A stretch of DNA of 37,078 nucleotides from Planctomycetia bacterium (GTDB taxonomy: Bacteria; Planctomycetota; Planctomycetia; Pirellulales; UBA1268). The notes under the pieces were generated by a model, which was given only the letters and a program-made list of their open reading frames with translations, did not search any database and had not been told where the DNA came from. This document shows positions 14,319 through 21,975 of this stretch, piece by piece. The stretch spans positions 1-37,078 of the forward strand of contig RFPF01000003.1 of the NCBI GenBank assembly GCA_009926295.1, written 5' to 3'. The position numbers and the translations under genes were made by a program. The stretch's first letter is position 1, and each line of letters begins with the position of its first letter.

Positions 14319-15167
14319 CTACCCGATGCGGCAGTGCGCCAGAATGTCTGCGGCGTTCGCCGCATACCCGGTGTAAAACGGCCCGAATTCCGCATATCGA
14401 GCGCTCGCCTCGTCGAACCTCATCGTGTACACGATGTCCTTGAGGAAGTCGGGACGCCGCGCCCAGAGCGTGACGCCCCACTCCCAGTCGTCGAGGCCGA
14501 CGCTCACGGTGATGAGCTGCGTGACGCGGCCGCCGAACGACATCCCGGTGCGACCGTGCTCGGCCATCAGCCGGCTGCGGTCCTCGAACGGCAGCAGGAA
14601 CCAGTTCTCCCCAACCTCGCGCTTCTTGTTCATCGGGTAGAAGCAGGCGTTCGGCCAGGGCGGCAGGTCGGGCTCGATCCGCGCCTTCCGCATCGCCGGC
14701 TCCCTGGCGGCGTAGCCCTGCACCTTCGCCTTGTAGGCCGCGCCGTCGGGCGACTCGCCCTCGTCCACGAGTCGCTTGGCGTACTGCTCGACGTTCGGTA
14801 CGTACTCGCTCACCTCGGTGAGGCCGACGAACGAGTAGGTCGGCACGACCACCGACCCGAGGCCTCCGGAGAGCAGCCGCTGATGGACTCCCTCGACCAC
14901 CATGGGCGAGGGATCCATGGCCACGACGCCGAAGTCGGCCTTGTGGCCCGCCACGATCCATGCCTGGAGCCGCCGCGGCGCGTCGGATGCGGCCGGGTCG
15001 AGGACCGCGGCGAACCTCCGCCTCACGTCTTCGAGGCCCGCCACGCTCAGCTTCCCGAGCCGGCCGCGGTCGAAGGAGTAGAAGGAGTGCGTGACGTGCC
15101 ATCCCTTCGACGGCTCCAGTGACACCTCGTCGGTCTGCGGTTCGGTTTCGGGGCGGGCGGGCTGCAT
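14319..15167 (-). CDS. hemQ: HemQ-type coproheme decarboxylase (chlorite dismutase-like family)
   Basis: HSFYSFDR..., ACFYPMNKKREVGENWFLLPFEDRSRLMAEHGRTGMSFGGRVTQLITVSVGLDDWEWGVTLWARRPDFLKDIVYTMRFDEASARYAEFGPFYTGY. Confidence 0.93.
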   Translation of the reverse strand: MQPARPETEPQTDEVSLEPSKGWHVTHSFYSFDRGRLGKLSVAGLEDVRRRFAAVLDPAASDAPRRLQAWIVAGHKADFGVVAMDPSPMVVEGVHQRLLSGGLGSVVVPTYSFVGLTEVSEYVPNVEQYAKRLVDEGESPDGAAYKAKVQGYAAREPAMRKARIEPDLPPWPNACFYPMNKKREVGENWFLLPFEDRSRLMAEHGRTGMSFGGRVTQLITVSVGLDDWEWGVTLWARRPDFLKDIVYTMRFDEASARYAEFGPFYTGYAANAADILAHCRIG

Positions 15168-15325: not shown

Positions 15326-15598
15326 ATGGGACAGGCGATCGTCGATCCGCAGGAACTGCGGCGTTTCGCCCAGCGACTGCGGCATTTCAGCAACGAGGTC
15401 ATGACCCAGATGCAGACGGTGCAGCGGCAGCTCGCCGCCCTCGGCGCCAGTTGGCGCGACCAGGAACACCAGAAGTTCCAGGAGGAGTTCGAACAGCAGC
15501 TCAACACGTTCGGCCGATTCGTCGAATCGACGGGCGAATACGTCCCCTACCTGATCCGCAAGGCGGAGCGGGTGGAGGAATACCAGCAGCAGCGCTGA
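15326..15598 (+). CDS. WXG100 family protein (ESX/type VII-like)
   Basis: 90 aa, all-helical; turn motif LGASWRDQEHQKFQEEFEQQL between two helices, matching WXG100 length and architecture. Confidence 0.8.
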   Translation: MGQAIVDPQELRRFAQRLRHFSNEVMTQMQTVQRQLAALGASWRDQEHQKFQEEFEQQLNTFGRFVESTGEYVPYLIRKAERVEEYQQQR

Positions 15599-15609
15599 CA
15601 ACTCCCCAG

Positions 15610-16218
15610 ATGTCCACCCAGGCCGATGTCAAATCGCTCGACACGCTCGCCTTCGTGAAGGCCGCGCTCGCGGCCTACGCCCACGAGAGCGCGGGGGCCC
15701 TCGACGAGATCGAACTCGAGGGCCGCAAGGCCGTCGACTACATCACCGTCGACCAGGCGGCCTTCTGGAAGGCGGAGGTGCGGAGGTGCAACGATCTTGT
15801 GAACCAGGCGATCAAGGATCTCGAGCACTGCCGGGCCTTCAAGAAGGTGGGCGACAACCAGCCCTCCTGCGCCGAGGAGAAAAAGGCGCTGGAGAAGGCG
15901 CGGGCGAAGCTCGCCCGCGCCGAGCGAAAGGCGGAGGCCGTGCGGCGCTGGACGCCGGTCGTGCTCCAGCAGTTTCGGGAGACGTGCGTGCGTCTCGTGC
16001 ACTTTCGCGAAGTGGTCGACGTCGACTGCCCGAAGGCGATCGCCCGGGTCGAGCGGATGCTCAGGTCGCTCGAGGCGTACGGCCAGCTCTCCGGGCCACG
16101 GCCGGACTCGACCGACGCCGCCGGCGGGAGCGCGGCGGCTGTGACGCGGCAGATTGAGGAAGCCCCGTCCGGAACGTCCGCCGCGCCGGTGGTGGACGAC
16201 GCGGGGGCGGCGACATGA
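15610..16218 (+). CDS. Hypothetical helical protein of the type VII-like locus
   Basis: 202 aa starting MSTQADVKSLDTLAFVKAAL; helical, five Cys, charged coiled coil, low-complexity tail; ATGA overlap with next gene. Confidence 0.75.
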   Translation: MSTQADVKSLDTLAFVKAALAAYAHESAGALDEIELEGRKAVDYITVDQAAFWKAEVRRCNDLVNQAIKDLEHCRAFKKVGDNQPSCAEEKKALEKARAKLARAERKAEAVRRWTPVVLQQFRETCVRLVHFREVVDVDCPKAIARVERMLRSLEAYGQLSGPRPDSTDAAGGSAAAVTRQIEEAPSGTSAAPVVDDAGAAT

Positions 16219-16451
16219 AGCACTTCGACCTGTCCAGTGGAGCGGCGAAGATGGCGCTGGCCCTCAAGCAGCTCGACCTGAAGTGGGAGACTGCCAAGGA
16301 GACCTGGAACGACTCCACCAGCAAGGCCTTCCACAAGGAGCACATCGAGCCGCTGATGCCCGAGGTCAAGCAGACGCTCGAGGCGGTGGGGCGGCTCGCA
16401 GAGGTGCTGGCCCGGGCTGCCCGCGACGTGAGCGACCAATTCGATGGCTGA
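16215..16451 (+). CDS. Small WXG100-like helical protein (78 aa)
   Basis: MKHFDLSSGAAKMALALKQLDLKWETAKETWNDSTSKAFHKEHIEPLMPEVKQTLEAVGRLAEVLARAARDVSDQFDG: helix - W-N-D turn - helix; overlaps both neighbouring ORFs. Confidence 0.7.
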   Translation: MKHFDLSSGAAKMALALKQLDLKWETAKETWNDSTSKAFHKEHIEPLMPEVKQTLEAVGRLAEVLARAARDVSDQFDG

Positions 16452-19400
16452 AGCCCCCGCCGAACCGGCTCCCGACACCCCCTACGATCGCGACGTGCTC
16501 CGGGCACAGATGGCGACGCTGCGCAGCGAGGCTGCGGCCCGGGCGAAGCTCGAGAACGAGATCGCGGCGGAACACGAGGCCGAACGCACCGCGGCCCAAG
16601 CCGACTCCGACCAGAAGCTCGCTGCGACCCGCGAGAAATATGCGCGGGAGATCGACGCCACCCGGCGGGAGTACGAAACGGTGCTCCAGAAGGTGGCGGC
16701 CCAAGCCGCAGCCGAGCAGAAGAAGCTCGACGAGCAGCGCAAGGGCTTCGCCGCCACGATCCTCCGCACCTGCGCCGCCCAGGAGAAGCAGCTCAAGGAC
16801 GACGACCAGTTCGAGGACTCGACGTTCCGCGACACCTGGAAGGACAAGCGCAAGGAACCCAACCAACGCCACGCCCGGGCGGAGAAGGAACTCACCCGCA
16901 CGCTCGCGCAGCTCGACGAGGCGGACCACAAGAGCCTCCAGGCGCTGGCCGGATGGCGGATCACCCCGCCGCCCGAGCCCGGCGACCAGGCTTCACTCGA
17001 CTCCTCGGCCCCGCTCGAATCATCCCCGCCGGCCGGAGACGTGCTCGCACAGCTCGAGCGGCTTCGGGCGGAAATCGTCGAGGCGGCCGCCGCGCTCTGC
17101 GGCCTCGCCACGGCTCGCACGGCGTTCTCCGGGGGCACCCTGGGCGCGGCGATCGTCCTGCCGATCGTCGCCGCTCTCGCCGCCGCTGCGGCAACCTTCT
17201 TCCTCGTGCCCGGCGACATGCAGCTCCGGTCGATCGTGGCGGGCACCGTCGCACTCCTCGTCGCGGGACTCGGCGCCGGACTGTCCGTGGTGCTGGTCGG
17301 GAGGCTGCGGAAGCGGGCTCGGGCGGAGGCCGTCGACCTGCGGGCGAGGCTCGGCGGCGAGATCACCCGCGCCCGCCGCCTGCACGCCGCGGGCCTCCAA
17401 TTCATCAAGGCCCGGCGCGACGACCAGGCCCGCGAACTCGAGGAGCGGTTCAATCGCGAGGTCGCCGAGCGGGCCGCCGTGCTGCAGGCGAAGCTCGCGG
17501 AGGCCGTCGCCCGAAAGGACAAGCAGTCGGCCGAACTCGAGGCGAAGTACCATGCGAAGGTCGCCGAGATCGCCCGCAAGCGGGATTCCTCGAAGCAGGC
17601 CGCCGAAGCGAAGTATCCACCCCGCTTGGCGGCCCTCGAGACCGGCTGCCGGGAGGATCTCGCCCGCCTCGAGTCGGCCAAAGTGGAGCGGCTGGCAGCC
17701 GCGGACGCCCGCCGTGACCAGCGCTGGCGGGAGATGACGGACCGCTGGCGTGAGGCCCGCACCTCGACGGCTGCGGTGTACGAGGAGGTGAGCCGCATCG
17801 ACGCCGAGGCGTTTCGTGGCTGGGAGGCCCTTGCCGACGAGGCCACCCCGCTGCCGGTCGCCTGCCCGCAGGGCCTGCGGTTCGGAACCCAGTCGCTGAC
17901 GCTCGAAAAGGTTCCCGGAGGCGTCTCGCCGCATGCCGAGCTGAACGCGTTCGGACCGGTATCGTGGACACAGCCGGCACTCGTGCCCTTTCCACGCCAC
18001 GCATCCCTCCTCATCAAGACGACGGCCGACCAGAAGGAGACGGCGTCGGCCATGATGCAGGCCCTCATGCTCCGCATCGCCAGCGGCATCCCGGCCGGGC
18101 AGAGCCGCTTCACGATCATCGACCCGCTCGGCCTCGGCAAGCAGTTTGCAGGCTTCATGCATCTCGCCGATCACGACGAACTGCTCGTCACCAGCCGCAT
18201 CTGGACGGAGCCGCAGCAGATCGAGCAGCGGCTCGCCGACATCACCGAACAGATGGAGGTGGTCATCCAGAAGTACCTCCGCAACGAATACGAGTCGATC
18301 GGGGACTACAACGCCGATGCCGAGGTGCCGGAGCCCTACCGATTCGTGGCCGTCGCCAATTTTCCCGCGAACTTCACGGAAACGAGCGCCCGGCGGTTGG
18401 CGAGCATCGCGGCCAGCGGCGCCCGCTGCGGCGTCTACCTCGTCCTCTCGGTCGACACGAAGGCGGCGCTGCCGTCCGACTTCAGCCTTGCCGACGTCGA
18501 GAAGCACTCCACGACGCTCGTCCTCAAGGACGGCACGTTCACGTGGACCGACCCGGAATTCTCCAGGTGGCCGCTGACCGTCGAGCAGGCGCCGTCCGAC
18601 GAGGTGTTCACGCAGATCATCCAGCGGGTGGGGAAGGCCGCCAAGGCGGCCAAGCGGGTGGAGGTGCCCTTCGACCGCGTCGCGCCGAAGGAGGAGGACT
18701 GGTGGAAGGGGAGCACGGCGAGCGAGGTGCTCGCGCCGCTCGGCCCGGCCGGGGCGAAGAAGCTGCAATACCTCAAGCTCGGCAAGGGCACGAGCCAGCA
18801 CGTGCTCATCGCCGGCAAGACGGGCTCCGGAAAATCGACGCTGATGCACGCCATGATCACGAGCCTGGCGTTGCAATACAGCCCCAACGAGATCCAGTTC
18901 TACCTCATCGACTTCAAGAAGGGCGTCGAATTCAAGCTCTACGACCACTACAAGCTGCCGCACGCCCGGGTGATCGCGATCGAGAGCGAGCGCGAGTTCG
19001 GGCTCTCGGTGCTCGAGCAGCTCGACCGCGAGCTCAAGCGCCGCGGCGACCTGTTCCGCGACCTCGCCGTGCAGGACGTGGCTGGGTTTCGCGCCACCGG
19101 CCACGCCGACCCGATGCCGCGGATCCTCCTCATCATCGACGAGTTCCAGGAAATCTTCGTCGAGGACGACAAGTTGGCGCAGGAGGCGGCCCTGATCCTC
19201 GACCGGCTGGTGCGTCAGGGCCGTGCGTTCGGCATGCACGTGCTCCTCGGGTCGCAGACGCTCGGCGGCTCCTACAGCCTCCCCCGCGCCACGATGGGGC
19301 AGATGGCGGTGCGGGTAGCGCTGCAGTGCAACGAAGCCGACTCCAGCCTGATCCTCTCGGAGGACAACACGGCGGCCAGGCTGCTCACGCGGCCGGGCGA

Positions 19401-20616
19401 GGCGATCTACAACGACGCCAACGGCATGGTTGCCGGCAACAACCCGTTCCAGGTGGTGTTTCTCAACGACGAGCGCCGCGAGCGCTACCTCGGGGCCCTT
19501 CGGGCCATGGCCGATCGCCGCACCGACATCCCCGCCGTGCCCCGGATGGTGTTCGACGGCAACGAGGCGGCCGATCCCGCGGGCAACCCGCTGCTGCGCG
19601 AACTCCTCGCCACGAATACCGTCCACGGACGCGAGTTGACGGCGCCCCTGGCGTGGCTCGGTGACGCGATCGCGATCAAGGATCCCACCGCGGCCATCTT
19701 CCGCCGCCAGGGAGGCGCCAACATGCTCGTGGTCGGTCAGCGCGAGGATCTCGGCACCGCTCTGCTGGCGATGTCGATCGTGAGCCTCGCCGCCGGGCAC
19801 GACCCGCACCCGGGCGGGGGCACCGGACGCCCGGCGCGGTTCGTGCTCTTCGAGCCGGCGATCGCCGAGGAGAAGCCGGAGATCATGCTCGCGTCGCTCG
19901 CCGGGAACCTGCCGCACGACGTCGAGGTGGTGGGGCGGCTCGGCGTCCCCGACGCCATGGAGCGGGTCGCGGCCGAGGTGCGACGGCGCGTCGATGGCCA
20001 GGTGCTCGACGGCGAGGCGGTGTTCGTGGTGATCCGCGACCTGGCCCGCTTTCGCGAGCTCCGCAAGGCCGACGACGGCTTCGGCTTCTCTTTCGGATCG
20101 GAGAAGAAGGTTGGGCCGGCACAGCACTTCCTCGACATCCTCAAGGACGGCCCCACCGTCGGCATCCACGTGCTCCTGTGGTGCGATTCGCTCACGAACC
20201 TGATGCGCACCTTCGAGCGGGGCGCCCTCAAGGAGTTCGAACTCCGCGTGCTCTTCCAGATGAGCGGCTCCGACTCCAGCCAGCTCATCGACAATCCGCT
20301 CGCGAGCAAGCTGGGGCCGCAGCGGGCCCTGTTCATCCACGAGGAGACGGGCACCTTCGAGAAGTTCCGCCCCTACGCCTTCCCGAGCCCCGCGTGGCTC
20401 GCCGGCCTGTCGGCCCGGCTCCGCGAGCGGCCGCAGGGCACGCCGGGAGAGCGACCGGCCGCGGCCGCATCCCCGCAGCCGCCGCCATCGGCTGCTGCGG
20501 AGCAGGGCGAGACGTTCGACTTCGGCTTCGGCGGCGCGGAGGGCGAGTTCAACTTCACGAAGTTCCTCGACGATCCGCCGAATCCCGGTGCCGACCCGAT
20601 CCCGCCTGCGCCTTAG
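16444..20616 (+). CDS. FtsK/SpoIIIE-EccC-like membrane ATPase, three tandem P-loop-like domains
   Basis: 1390 aa; N-terminal coiled coil; two TM helices (about 17140-17310); second coiled coil; central domain with AGKTGSGKST (18811-18840) and ILLIIDEFQE (about 19123-19152); flanking domains without canonical P-loops. Confidence 0.92.
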   Translation: MAEAPAEPAPDTPYDRDVLRAQMATLRSEAAARAKLENEIAAEHEAERTAAQADSDQKLAATREKYAREIDATRREYETVLQKVAAQAAAEQKKLDEQRKGFAATILRTCAAQEKQLKDDDQFEDSTFRDTWKDKRKEPNQRHARAEKELTRTLAQLDEADHKSLQALAGWRITPPPEPGDQASLDSSAPLESSPPAGDVLAQLERLRAEIVEAAAALCGLATARTAFSGGTLGAAIVLPIVAALAAAAATFFLVPGDMQLRSIVAGTVALLVAGLGAGLSVVLVGRLRKRARAEAVDLRARLGGEITRARRLHAAGLQFIKARRDDQARELEERFNREVAERAAVLQAKLAEAVARKDKQSAELEAKYHAKVAEIARKRDSSKQAAEAKYPPRLAALETGCREDLARLESAKVERLAAADARRDQRWREMTDRWREARTSTAAVYEEVSRIDAEAFRGWEALADEATPLPVACPQGLRFGTQSLTLEKVPGGVSPHAELNAFGPVSWTQPALVPFPRHASLLIKTTADQKETASAMMQALMLRIASGIPAGQSRFTIIDPLGLGKQFAGFMHLADHDELLVTSRIWTEPQQIEQRLADITEQMEVVIQKYLRNEYESIGDYNADAEVPEPYRFVAVANFPANFTETSARRLASIAASGARCGVYLVLSVDTKAALPSDFSLADVEKHSTTLVLKDGTFTWTDPEFSRWPLTVEQAPSDEVFTQIIQRVGKAAKAAKRVEVPFDRVAPKEEDWWKGSTASEVLAPLGPAGAKKLQYLKLGKGTSQHVLIAGKTGSGKSTLMHAMITSLALQYSPNEIQFYLIDFKKGVEFKLYDHYKLPHARVIAIESEREFGLSVLEQLDRELKRRGDLFRDLAVQDVAGFRATGHADPMPRILLIIDEFQEIFVEDDKLAQEAALILDRLVRQGRAFGMHVLLGSQTLGGSYSLPRATMGQMAVRVALQCNEADSSLILSEDNTAARLLTRPGEAIYNDANGMVAGNNPFQVVFLNDERRERYLGALRAMADRRTDIPAVPRMVFDGNEAADPAGNPLLRELLATNTVHGRELTAPLAWLGDAIAIKDPTAAIFRRQGGANMLVVGQREDLGTALLAMSIVSLAAGHDPHPGGGTGRPARFVLFEPAIAEEKPEIMLASLAGNLPHDVEVVGRLGVPDAMERVAAEVRRRVDGQVLDGEAVFVVIRDLARFRELRKADDGFGFSFGSEKKVGPAQHFLDILKDGPTVGIHVLLWCDSLTNLMRTFERGALKEFELRVLFQMSGSDSSQLIDNPLASKLGPQRALFIHEETGTFEKFRPYAFPSPAWLAGLSARLRERPQGTPGERPAAAASPQPPPSAAAEQGETFDFGFGGAEGEFNFTKFLDDPPNPGADPIPPAP

Positions 20617-20658: not shown

Positions 20659-21975
20659 TCAGCGCCGCAGCGTGTCGCTCGTGAGATGCCCGAAGAGCGT
20701 TTCGCGACCCCGCAGCACGTAGAACTTGAGCGGACCGAGGTTGTCCTCGCGGGCCTTGTCGAGCACGTACACCACGTTGTCGCCGGTGATCGTCTCCCAC
20801 ACGTGCAGGCCCACGAGGATGTCCCCGGCCCGAATGCCCTGCTCCGTCGCCGGACCGTCGTCCCGAACCTCGCGAACGAGCAGCCCGCCGCGGTATCGCG
20901 ACTGCAGCTTCTGCACCCTGGCAAGTGGCACAGCCTCCACCCGCAGGCCGAGCTCGAGCCAGCACCGCTCCTCGACGGTGAGCGACAGGTCGCGGGCGGC
21001 CGCCAGCGGCAGGTCGAGTCGCTCCTCGGCGCCGGCCCGCAGGACCGTCACCGGCACGCTGTCGCCCGCCTTACGGCCGAGTAACGCCCGCTCGAGGTCG
21101 AGCTGGCTCGCGACGGGCAGGTCGCACACCCGTGTGATCACGTCGCCGGCCTTCACGCCGATCGTCTCCGCGGGACTCTCCCCGTGGACGGCCTCGACGA
21201 CGACACCTCGTTGGCCGTCTCCCCTGCCGACGATGCCATGCCACGTACGGTCGACCCGCTCCACCGAGAGCAGTTCCGTCACCACGGCGAGCGCCTTGTC
21301 GATCGGGATCGCGAATCCGATACCCTGAGCCCCGGCACGAACCGCCACGTTGATCCCGATCATCTCCCCGTTGATGTTGAGGAGCGGCCCGCCGGAATTG
21401 CCGGGATTGATGCTGGCATCGGTCTGGATGAGGTCGTCGTAGCGTTGCGTCCGGCTCACCTCGACGTCGCGGTGGAGAGCCGAGATGATGCCGCGCGTCA
21501 CCGTGTGCTCGTAGCCGAACGCGTTGCCCAGGGCGAGCACCGTCTCGCCGATCATGAGGTCGCTCGACGTCCCGATCGTGATCACCGGGAGCGGGGCGTC
21601 GGCCGCGACTTTGATCACCGCGAGGTCGGTTCGCGGATCGTGCGAGACGAGCGTCGCCGACACCGTCCTGCCGGATGCGAGCGTGACCTCGATCCGCCGC
21701 ACCCCCTCGACAACGTGGTAGTTTGTCACCACGTACCCGCGGGGGTCGATCACGACCCCCGTGCCCATGCCGTTGACCTTCCGCTGCTCGGCGCCGGGGT
21801 CATCCTCACCGGCCGGGACGAACTTCTGGCCGTGGATGTTCACGACCGAGTCCCGCGTCGACTCGATGGCCCGGACGATGGCGGTGCGCCGCGACTCGAC
21901 CGCGGCCGCCGGGCGGATGAGCGCGGCGCCGCACGCGATGGCCGCGACCACGGCGAAGAACCGCGTACACCGCAT
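20659..21975 (-). CDS. DegP/HtrA-like trypsin-fold serine protease with PDZ domains
   Basis: Signal peptide; NYHVVEG (His), DPRTDLAVIK (Asp), INPGNSGGPLLN (Ser); C-terminal PDZ-like repeats. Confidence 0.93.
   Translation of the reverse strand: MRCTRFFAVVAAIACGAALIRPAAAVESRRTAIVRAIESTRDSVVNIHGQKFVPAGEDDPGAEQRKVNGMGTGVVIDPRGYVVTNYHVVEGVRRIEVTLASGRTVSATLVSHDPRTDLAVIKVAADAPLPVITIGTSSDLMIGETVLALGNAFGYEHTVTRGIISALHRDVEVSRTQRYDDLIQTDASINPGNSGGPLLNINGEMIGINVAVRAGAQGIGFAIPIDKALAVVTELLSVERVDRTWHGIVGRGDGQRGVVVEAVHGESPAETIGVKAGDVITRVCDLPVASQLDLERALLGRKAGDSVPVTVLRAGAEERLDLPLAAARDLSLTVEERCWLELGLRVEAVPLARVQKLQSRYRGGLLVREVRDDGPATEQGIRAGDILVGLHVWETITGDNVVYVLDKAREDNLGPLKFYVLRGRETLFGHLTSDTLRR

What the first reader, a model, noticed from the sequence alone, without database searches (positions are those of the whole stretch)
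15326..20616. Minimal type VII secretion-like locus: WXG100 + Cys-containing helical protein + WXG-like 78-mer + EccC-like ATPase
Four same-strand genes with a 4-nt and an 8-nt overlap encode a WXG100 protein, a 202-aa helical unknown, a second WXG-like protein and a two-TM FtsK/SpoIIIE ATPase. EccC/EssC plus WXG100 is the conserved core of ESX/T7SS in Actinobacteria and Firmicutes. Here no EccB, EccD, EccE, EsaA, EssA, EssB or mycosin homologue is recognisable in the flanks, so this may be a reduced or different export machine in a cell with an outer membrane. That it is a secretion system is inference.
Basis: partly seen in the sequence, partly recalled or inferred. Interest (0 to 1): 0.82.

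Follow-up and report, generated by a model that had tools for sequence, protein, structure and literature searches.

The report
Toxin-free WXG100/EccC-like ATPase module
A planctomycete carries a four-gene relative of the type VII secretion engine (a motor ATPase and three small helical proteins) that is kept as a set across its phylum, but it has no toxin cargo and several relatives have cleanly deleted the motor's membrane anchor, so 'secretion system' is only one possible reading.

Summary
The four genes exist as described: WXG100-like (15326-15598), a 202-aa protein "C202" (15610-16218), a second WXG-like 78-mer "S78" (16215-16451) and an EccC-like ATPase (16444-20616). All are under strong purifying selection. 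In 296 sampled Planctomycetota genomes WXG and ATPase are both present in 41, both absent in 254 and discordant in 1; some genomes keep the parts scattered. The ATPase folds like EccC, not FtsK, but end to end it matches another family: FtsK-like ATPases beside WXG100 genes on Caballeronia (TerY-P operon), Deinococcus, Rhodococcus and Helicobacter plasmids. The nearest solved WXG relative is H. pylori HP0062. Zhang et al. 2012 (PMC3482391) already noted solo-WXG modules in planctomycetes, so the kind is known. What I found no report of in the papers searched: C202-S78 lacks any toxin domain; the set is chromosomal and mostly single-copy, not visibly mobile; and the ATPase's transmembrane hairpin, present here, was precisely lost about three times. 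No EssB-type part or export motif was found. Best reading: an EccC-type motor acting on a fixed, non-toxic helical-hairpin client complex. Export is possible but unproven.

The parts
15326..15598 (+). WXG: 90-aa WXG100 helical-hairpin protein with W-R-D in place of W-x-G
   Evidence: Pfam WXG100 2.2e-10, 43 of 43 relatives match; best solved structure H. pylori HP0062, 2.6e-10
15610..16218 (+). C202: 202-aa protein, predicted long antiparallel alpha-hairpin with a disordered tail; no toxin domain
   Evidence: AlphaFold2 model, helices 2-77 and 88-161, pLDDT about 98 there; no Pfam match; weak match to helical N-termini of Deinococcus and Rhodococcus module proteins
15829..15870 (+). Cys74 and Cys87 codons flanking the C202 hairpin turn; candidate disulfide or metal pair
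   Evidence: both present in 46 and both absent in 14 of 60 orthologues, never one alone; a paralogue (L123) has only one
16215..16451 (+). S78: 78-aa second WXG100-like protein (invariant W-x-D), always next to C202
   Evidence: 29 of 52 relatives match Pfam WXG100 at E up to 0.1, best 3.6e-5; profile cross-match with WXG weak, E 0.0022 but probability 13%
16444..20616 (+). EccC/EssC-like ATPase, 1390 aa, of the 'three FtsK domains, only the middle active' family
   Evidence: Pfam FtsK_SpoIIIE 1.6e-31; fold EccC 2.4e-31; end-to-end match to TerY-P-type ATPases
17119..17310 (+). transmembrane hairpin of the ATPase (residues 226-289), cleanly missing in 16 of 63 orthologues
   Evidence: tree
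18814..18837 (+). Walker A (GKTGSGKS) of the middle, active ATPase domain
   Evidence: conserved across the family
19123..19146 (+). Walker B (ILLIIDEF) of the middle ATPase domain
   Evidence: D and E conserved across the family
19621..20463 (+). C-terminal degenerate ATPase-like domain (no Walker A)
   Evidence: AlphaFold2 secondary structure and sequence at the P-loop position; boundary approximate

Best explanation
The locus is a stand-alone, toxin-free member of the 'solo WXG100 + three-domain FtsK/HerA ATPase (only the middle domain active)' family, the one that accompanies TerY-P/CoCoNuT loci and resembles the H. pylori HP0062-HP0066 locus. Shown by computation: the genes form one co-retained set, the ATPase has an EccC-like fold with degenerate-active-degenerate domains, C202 is predicted to be a long alpha-hairpin and is encoded with S78, and the TM hairpin is optional in the family. 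Inferred: C202 and S78 pack into a rod like an LXG-Lap or PPE-PE targeting complex, WXG acts as the EsxA-like partner, and an ATPase hexamer engages this fixed client complex and pulls or remodels it with its middle ring. In most species, this one included, the motor would sit at the inner membrane; in about three lineages it is predicted soluble. The conserved step is therefore taken to be client handling by the motor. Whether the client crosses the inner membrane is open (near even odds for anchored forms).
For: Co-retention of WXG, C202 and ATPase over 296 genomes and when unlinked. Purifying selection. Fold EccC first. End-to-end profile alignment to Caballeronia, Rhodococcus, Deinococcus and Helicobacter ATPases, E 4e-39 to 2e-86. 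WXG counterparts in Caballeronia, Helicobacter, Rhodococcus L093 and Deinococcus. In Helicobacter the C202 position holds a helical protein with a WHH nuclease plus a SUKH immunity gene. C202 hairpin model and link to module proteins. TM loss. PMC3482391 footnote and PMC11090510 describe the family.
Against: No direct evidence of complex formation; S78 is a sub-threshold WXG100 match and the A1-A2 profile probability is only 13%. C202's relation to toxin N-termini rests on E about 3e-4 for coiled-coil-like sequences, and the Helicobacter protein itself does not match. Most orthologues keep the TM hairpin, which favours a membrane task. The presumed client has not been shown to bind the motor.
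Confidence: 0.55

Rival explanations
1. Minimal type VII-like exporter: the ATPase threads WXG and/or C202-S78 across the inner membrane as secreted products, without EccB/D/E- or EssA/B-type subunits.
For: WXG100 plus EccC-like fold; TM hairpin in 47 of 63 orthologues including this one; client hairpin and small partner recall PPE-PE and LXG-Lap; toxin-immunity pair in the Helicobacter module suggests delivery outside the cell there; paired Cys in C202 would fit an oxidising compartment.
Against: TM hairpin deleted about three times with the operon kept; no YukC in six genomes and no YukD in five of them; no YxxxD/E motif; no signal peptide or effector repertoire recognised; usually one WXG100 per genome.
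Confidence: 0.3
2. DNA translocase: an FtsK-like DNA pump with WXG100 accessory proteins, in line with the DNA-processing setting of TerY-P loci.
For: FtsK_SpoIIIE domain; TerY-P neighbours of the Caballeronia relative act on DNA by annotation; partial motor-domain matches to SspH and HerA defence models.
Against: Foldseek ranks EccC/EssC at 1e-17 to 1e-31, FtsK at 1e-9 to 1e-11; extra degenerate ATPase domains as in EccC; strict coupling to WXG100-like proteins; no nuclease or DNA-binding gene in the module.
Confidence: 0.08
3. Decaying remnant of a mobile toxin-delivery element that has lost its toxin and is on the way out.
For: Relatives on plasmids carry nuclease and immunity genes; PMC3482391 called these modules mobile; L005 has a truncated C202.
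Against: dN/dS 0.02-0.24; invariant active-site motifs; co-retention across orders even when unlinked; stable flanking genes in the near clade.
Confidence: 0.05

Closest known systems
Solo-WXG / three-domain YueA-like ATPase modules ('mobile versions of T7SS', Zhang et al. 2012, PMC3482391) and the EssC-like ATPase + two WXG100 extension of TerY-P / Type III-A CoCoNuT loci (PMC11090510)
   Same: ATPase with degenerate-active-degenerate FtsK domains, helical N-terminal extension, a WXG100 protein and a second WXG-like one, and a helical third protein; planctomycetes are named in PMC3482391
   Different: No nuclease or toxin on the third protein, no VWA/kinase/phosphatase/CARF genes beside it, chromosomal and mostly single-copy, and a TM hairpin inserted in the helical region of most planctomycete ATPases
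Helicobacter pylori HP0062-HP0066 locus and the module on plasmid pNHP190012_1 (L096)
   Same: WRD-type WXG100 (HP0062 is the best solved match), small partner and FtsK-like ATPase in the same order
   Different: In L096 a WHH nuclease and a SUKH immunity gene stand where C202 is; ATPase shorter (823 aa) and without a TM hairpin. HP0063-HP0066 sequences were not examined here
Type VII secretion systems T7SSa-T7SSj (ESX, Ess; PMC11217815)
   Same: FtsK/SpoIIIE ATPase with EccC-like fold plus WXG100; helical-hairpin client with small partner recalls PPE-PE and LXG-Lap (PMC9600955)
   Different: Separate ATPase family with one domain after the active one, no YukC, no YukD in five of six genomes, no recognised effectors, TM hairpin dispensable

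Membership tests
Type VII secretion system (T7SSa-j) | WXG100 protein | tested here: met
   Pfam above cut-off for WXG; solved WXG100 relatives
Type VII secretion system (T7SSa-j) | EccC/EssC-family ATPase by curated model or full-length alignment | tested here: not met
   EccCa 110.8 bits against a cut-off of 509, EssC 104.9 against 778; alignment mainly over the active domain. The fold is EccC-like
Type VII secretion system (T7SSa-j) | ATPase anchored by transmembrane helices | tested here: inconclusive
   present in this window; absent in 16 of 63 orthologues
Type VII secretion system (T7SSa-j) | Further membrane components (EssB/YukC, EccB, YukD-like) | tested here: inconclusive
   YukC absent from six genomes, YukD from five of six, with B. 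subtilis positive; EccB search had no positive control; EccD, EccE, EsaA, EssA and mycosin not searched genome-wide
Type VII secretion system (T7SSa-j) | Export motif YxxxD/E at the C-terminus of a partner | tested here: not met
   0 of 60 WXG, 0 of 66 S78, 0 of 60 C202
Type VII secretion system (T7SSa-j) | Demonstrated ATPase-dependent secretion | not testable with these tools
   needs a secretion assay
Solo-WXG / three-domain ATPase module (Zhang 2012; CoCoNuT/TerY-P) | Three FtsK/HerA-like domains, only the middle active | tested here: met
   Walker A/B only in the middle domain; three alpha/beta domains in the model
Solo-WXG / three-domain ATPase module (Zhang 2012; CoCoNuT/TerY-P) | End-to-end similarity to module ATPases from other phyla | tested here: met
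   E 4e-39 to 2e-86 with five plasmid ATPases
Solo-WXG / three-domain ATPase module (Zhang 2012; CoCoNuT/TerY-P) | Helical third protein carrying a nuclease domain (CoCoNuT version) | tested here: not met
   C202 is a bare helical hairpin with no toxin domain
Solo-WXG / three-domain ATPase module (Zhang 2012; CoCoNuT/TerY-P) | ATPase without transmembrane helices (CoCoNuT version) | tested here: not met
   this window has them; 16 orthologues do not
Solo-WXG / three-domain ATPase module (Zhang 2012; CoCoNuT/TerY-P) | Mobile element | tested here: not met
   conserved flanking genes in the near clade, mostly single copy; full phylogenetic congruence not tested
FtsK/SpoIIIE DNA translocase | Motor fold closest to FtsK | tested here: not met
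   EccC/EssC at ranks 1-8, FtsK from rank 9 at E about 1e-11

The most novel reading that the evidence does not exclude
A non-secretory use of the WXG100/EccC machinery: in Planctomycetota a former toxin-delivery module was domesticated into a chromosomal, toxin-free motor that remodels a fixed helical-hairpin complex inside the cell, so that the membrane anchor became dispensable and was deleted several times.
Probability: 0.35. Interest if true: 0.8.

Novelty: new variant of a known kind. Interest (0 to 1): 0.52.

Why it matters
If export is confirmed, this would be a very small protein exporter in a bacterium with an outer membrane, with three small proteins and no recognised pore subunits: a simple test bed for what EccC-type motors need. 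If export is refuted, it would show that WXG100 proteins with an EccC-like ATPase, usually taken as the signature of type VII secretion, can serve an intracellular role, which would affect how many 'T7SS' annotations are read. The natural anchored and soluble forms make the question directly testable.

Tried and rejected
Foldseek with the C202 model found only unrelated coiled coils, nothing at E <= 0.001. A PDB profile search with S78 found designed helical bundles and similar chance hits. PADLOC gave only partial motor-domain matches to SspH, mad8 and HerA, so no known defence system. I looked for a replacement membrane gene just downstream on the same strand in the soluble-ATPase loci: none recurs. 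The promoter/terminator scan found nothing, uninformative at this GC. The idea that C202 has no relatives outside Planctomycetota was set aside for a weak link to helical N-terminal domains of module proteins (controls at E >= 0.05). The L005 'C202-S78 fusion' looks like a truncated, frame-shifted C202, not evidence for fusion. The EccB search cannot count as absence because its control did not ring.
Full report
Observation. I call them WXG (15326-15598), C202 (15610-16218), S78 (16215-16451) and ATPase (16444-20616). Pfam recognises WXG (WXG100, 2.2e-10) and the ATPase (FtsK_SpoIIIE, 1.6e-31) above cut-off, S78 below it (1.2e-3), and C202 not at all. NCBIfam sees EccCa, EssC and EccCb in the ATPase, far below their cut-offs.

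More than chance. A scan of 85,462 species genomes with the ATPase returned 79 loci (the limit of 80 was reached), with titles naming Planctomycetota almost throughout (several 'Kuenenia' titles and the generic ones are MAG labels I would not trust). Where upstream sequence exists, the order WXG-C202-S78-ATPase recurs in nearly all loci, with WXG almost always 90 aa long and usually the same 4-nt C202/S78 overlap. dN/dS against four relatives is 0.02-0.08 for WXG, 0.06-0.11 for S78, 0.14-0.20 for C202 and 0.19-0.24 for the ATPase.

Functional unity. In 296 Planctomycetota genomes WXG occurs in 42, the ATPase in 41 and C202 in 38; all ATPase genomes have WXG, and only one WXG genome (72% complete) lacks the ATPase. 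Fisher p is about 1e-49 (relatedness not corrected). In some genomes the set is split: C202-S78 together, WXG alone and the ATPase alone (WXG was not found in one of the four, G304). In the single-contig genome G032 they lie near 4.30, 2.50 and 5.92 Mb. Co-retention without linkage is strong evidence for one function. Singulisphaera and Paludisphaera have a second C202-S78-ATPase set without WXG beside it. The module is patchy: absent from the four sampled genomes of the window's own order other than itself and from all five of one genus of its class.

The ATPase. A model of residues 446-1345 (mean pLDDT 83) finds T. curvata EccC first (2.4e-31), EssC next, FtsK only at about 1e-11. Walker A and B are intact only in the middle of three alpha/beta domains. 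Profile alignment shows it is not simply EccC: it aligns from residues 349-536 through 1254-1316 with ATPases of Caballeronia, Helicobacter, Deinococcus and two Rhodococcus plasmids (E 4e-39 to 2e-86), whereas EccC/EssC align mainly over the active domain (E 1e-16 to 1e-21) and have further ATPase domains after it.

Those plasmid relatives place the module. Caballeronia: VWA, WXG100, 436 aa, 113 aa, 76 aa, FtsK, CARF, VWA, PP2C, kinase: a TerY-P operon. Helicobacter sp. NHP19-012: an 89-aa WXG100-like protein, a 340-aa helical protein with a C-terminal WHH nuclease, a SUKH immunity protein, a 77-aa protein, then FtsK. Deinococcus: FtsK, WXG, a second WXG-like protein, a 326-aa helical protein and a 144-aa protein; the WXG, S78 and ATPase profiles each find a counterpart there (weak for S78, 0.0035), and C202 does. 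The WXG profile's best solved structure is H. pylori HP0062 (2.6e-10, full length, same W-R-D), whose neighbourhood contains an FtsK-like ATPase and a nuclease (PMC3397514, PMC4978471).

Literature. Zhang et al. [quoted passage not shown] PMC11090510 describes the same ATPase type beside CoCoNuTs, with two WXG100 proteins and a coiled-coil nuclease, without TM helices, and notes stand-alone copies (citing Anantharaman 2012, not read here). The T7SSa-j survey covers Bacillota and Actinomycetota only (PMC11217815). So the kind is known; I found no description of the planctomycete set itself in the papers searched.

The small proteins. C202 is modelled as two antiparallel helices of about 75 residues, pLDDT about 98 over the helices, plus a disordered tail. 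It holds no recognised toxin domain. Its profile weakly but specifically matches helical N-termini of module proteins from Deinococcus (2.7e-4) and Rhodococcus (3.9e-4), with reversed and coiled-coil controls at 0.05 or worse; the Helicobacter protein does not match. Cys74 and Cys87 bracket the turn; 46 of 60 orthologues have both, 14 neither, and similar Cys pairs are visible in the Caballeronia, Rhodococcus and Deinococcus proteins (sequences). The pattern follows clades, so it is not 60 independent observations. S78 follows C202 in every locus where both were seen. By analogy with LXG-Lap and PPE-PE complexes (PMC9600955) I infer that C202-S78 form a rod-like client or targeting complex. 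In 13 genomes the C202 search found one or two copies each, and no extended toxin-bearing version was noticed.

The anchor. Forty-seven of 63 full-length planctomycete ATPases have hydrophobic segments; 16 have none (maximum 19-residue hydropathy 1.38 or less against 1.78 or more), with nothing between. Sister sequences show an in-frame absence of about 50-60 residues between the helical regions. The trees need three or four changes, strongly supported branches alone force two, and a single origin is rejected (p-AU 4e-5). The soluble forms keep the same operon where upstream sequence is available. Caballeronia and Deinococcus ATPases have no TM-like segment either. A motor whose anchor can be deleted repeatedly is unlikely to need its own membrane pore for its conserved task, although an anchored form could still export.

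Other T7SS parts. YukC was absent from six genomes and YukD from five of them, with B. subtilis as positive control; the EccB search had no positive control and cannot count. Usually one WXG100 protein per genome was found. No YxxxD/E export motif. Conserved neighbours are HemQ-like and HtrA-like genes, limited to the near clade.

Verdict. Membership in T7SS proper is not supported; membership in the solo-WXG three-domain ATPase family is. What looks new is the toxin-free, apparently non-mobile set, spread over several orders of the phylum, with a dispensable anchor. Mechanism beyond that is inference.

Noticed in passing
window 14319-15167 (-) and 20659-21975 (-): A HemQ/chlorite-dismutase-like gene diverges upstream and an HtrA/Do-like protease lies convergent downstream; relatives recur beside the module in 25 and 28 loci, which looks like shared descent of the region rather than function.
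   Followed up: partly
L117 3257-3724 and 5732-7006; L118; L127: In Planctomicrobium-type genomes the split C202-S78 pair lies beside a universal stress protein (Usp), and in L117/L118 also a PP2C phosphatase; TerY-P loci also carry PP2C, and H. pylori HP0066 was reported to bind a Usp by yeast two-hybrid (PMC11944479).
   Followed up: partly
G001:C1:2165659-2165889 (L125), Singulisphaera: A YukD-like (ubiquitin-like) gene above the Pfam cut-off (5.7e-14), far from the WXG module; its context was only glanced at.
   Followed up: partly
L123 6297-11242 and L124 6413-11257: Second C202-S78-ATPase set without an adjacent WXG gene in Singulisphaera and Paludisphaera.
   Followed up: partly
L094 11683-16485 (Deinococcus actinosclerus plasmid): A five-gene module with FtsK-like ATPase (no canonical Walker A pattern found), two WXG100-like proteins, a C202-like and an S78-like protein, and no recognised toxin domain: a possible second toxin-free version outside Planctomycetota.
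   Followed up: partly
G002:C1:1025186-1025431 (L091): A second, sub-threshold WXG100 match in the KatS3mg108 genome, in a 500-aa open frame.
   Followed up: no
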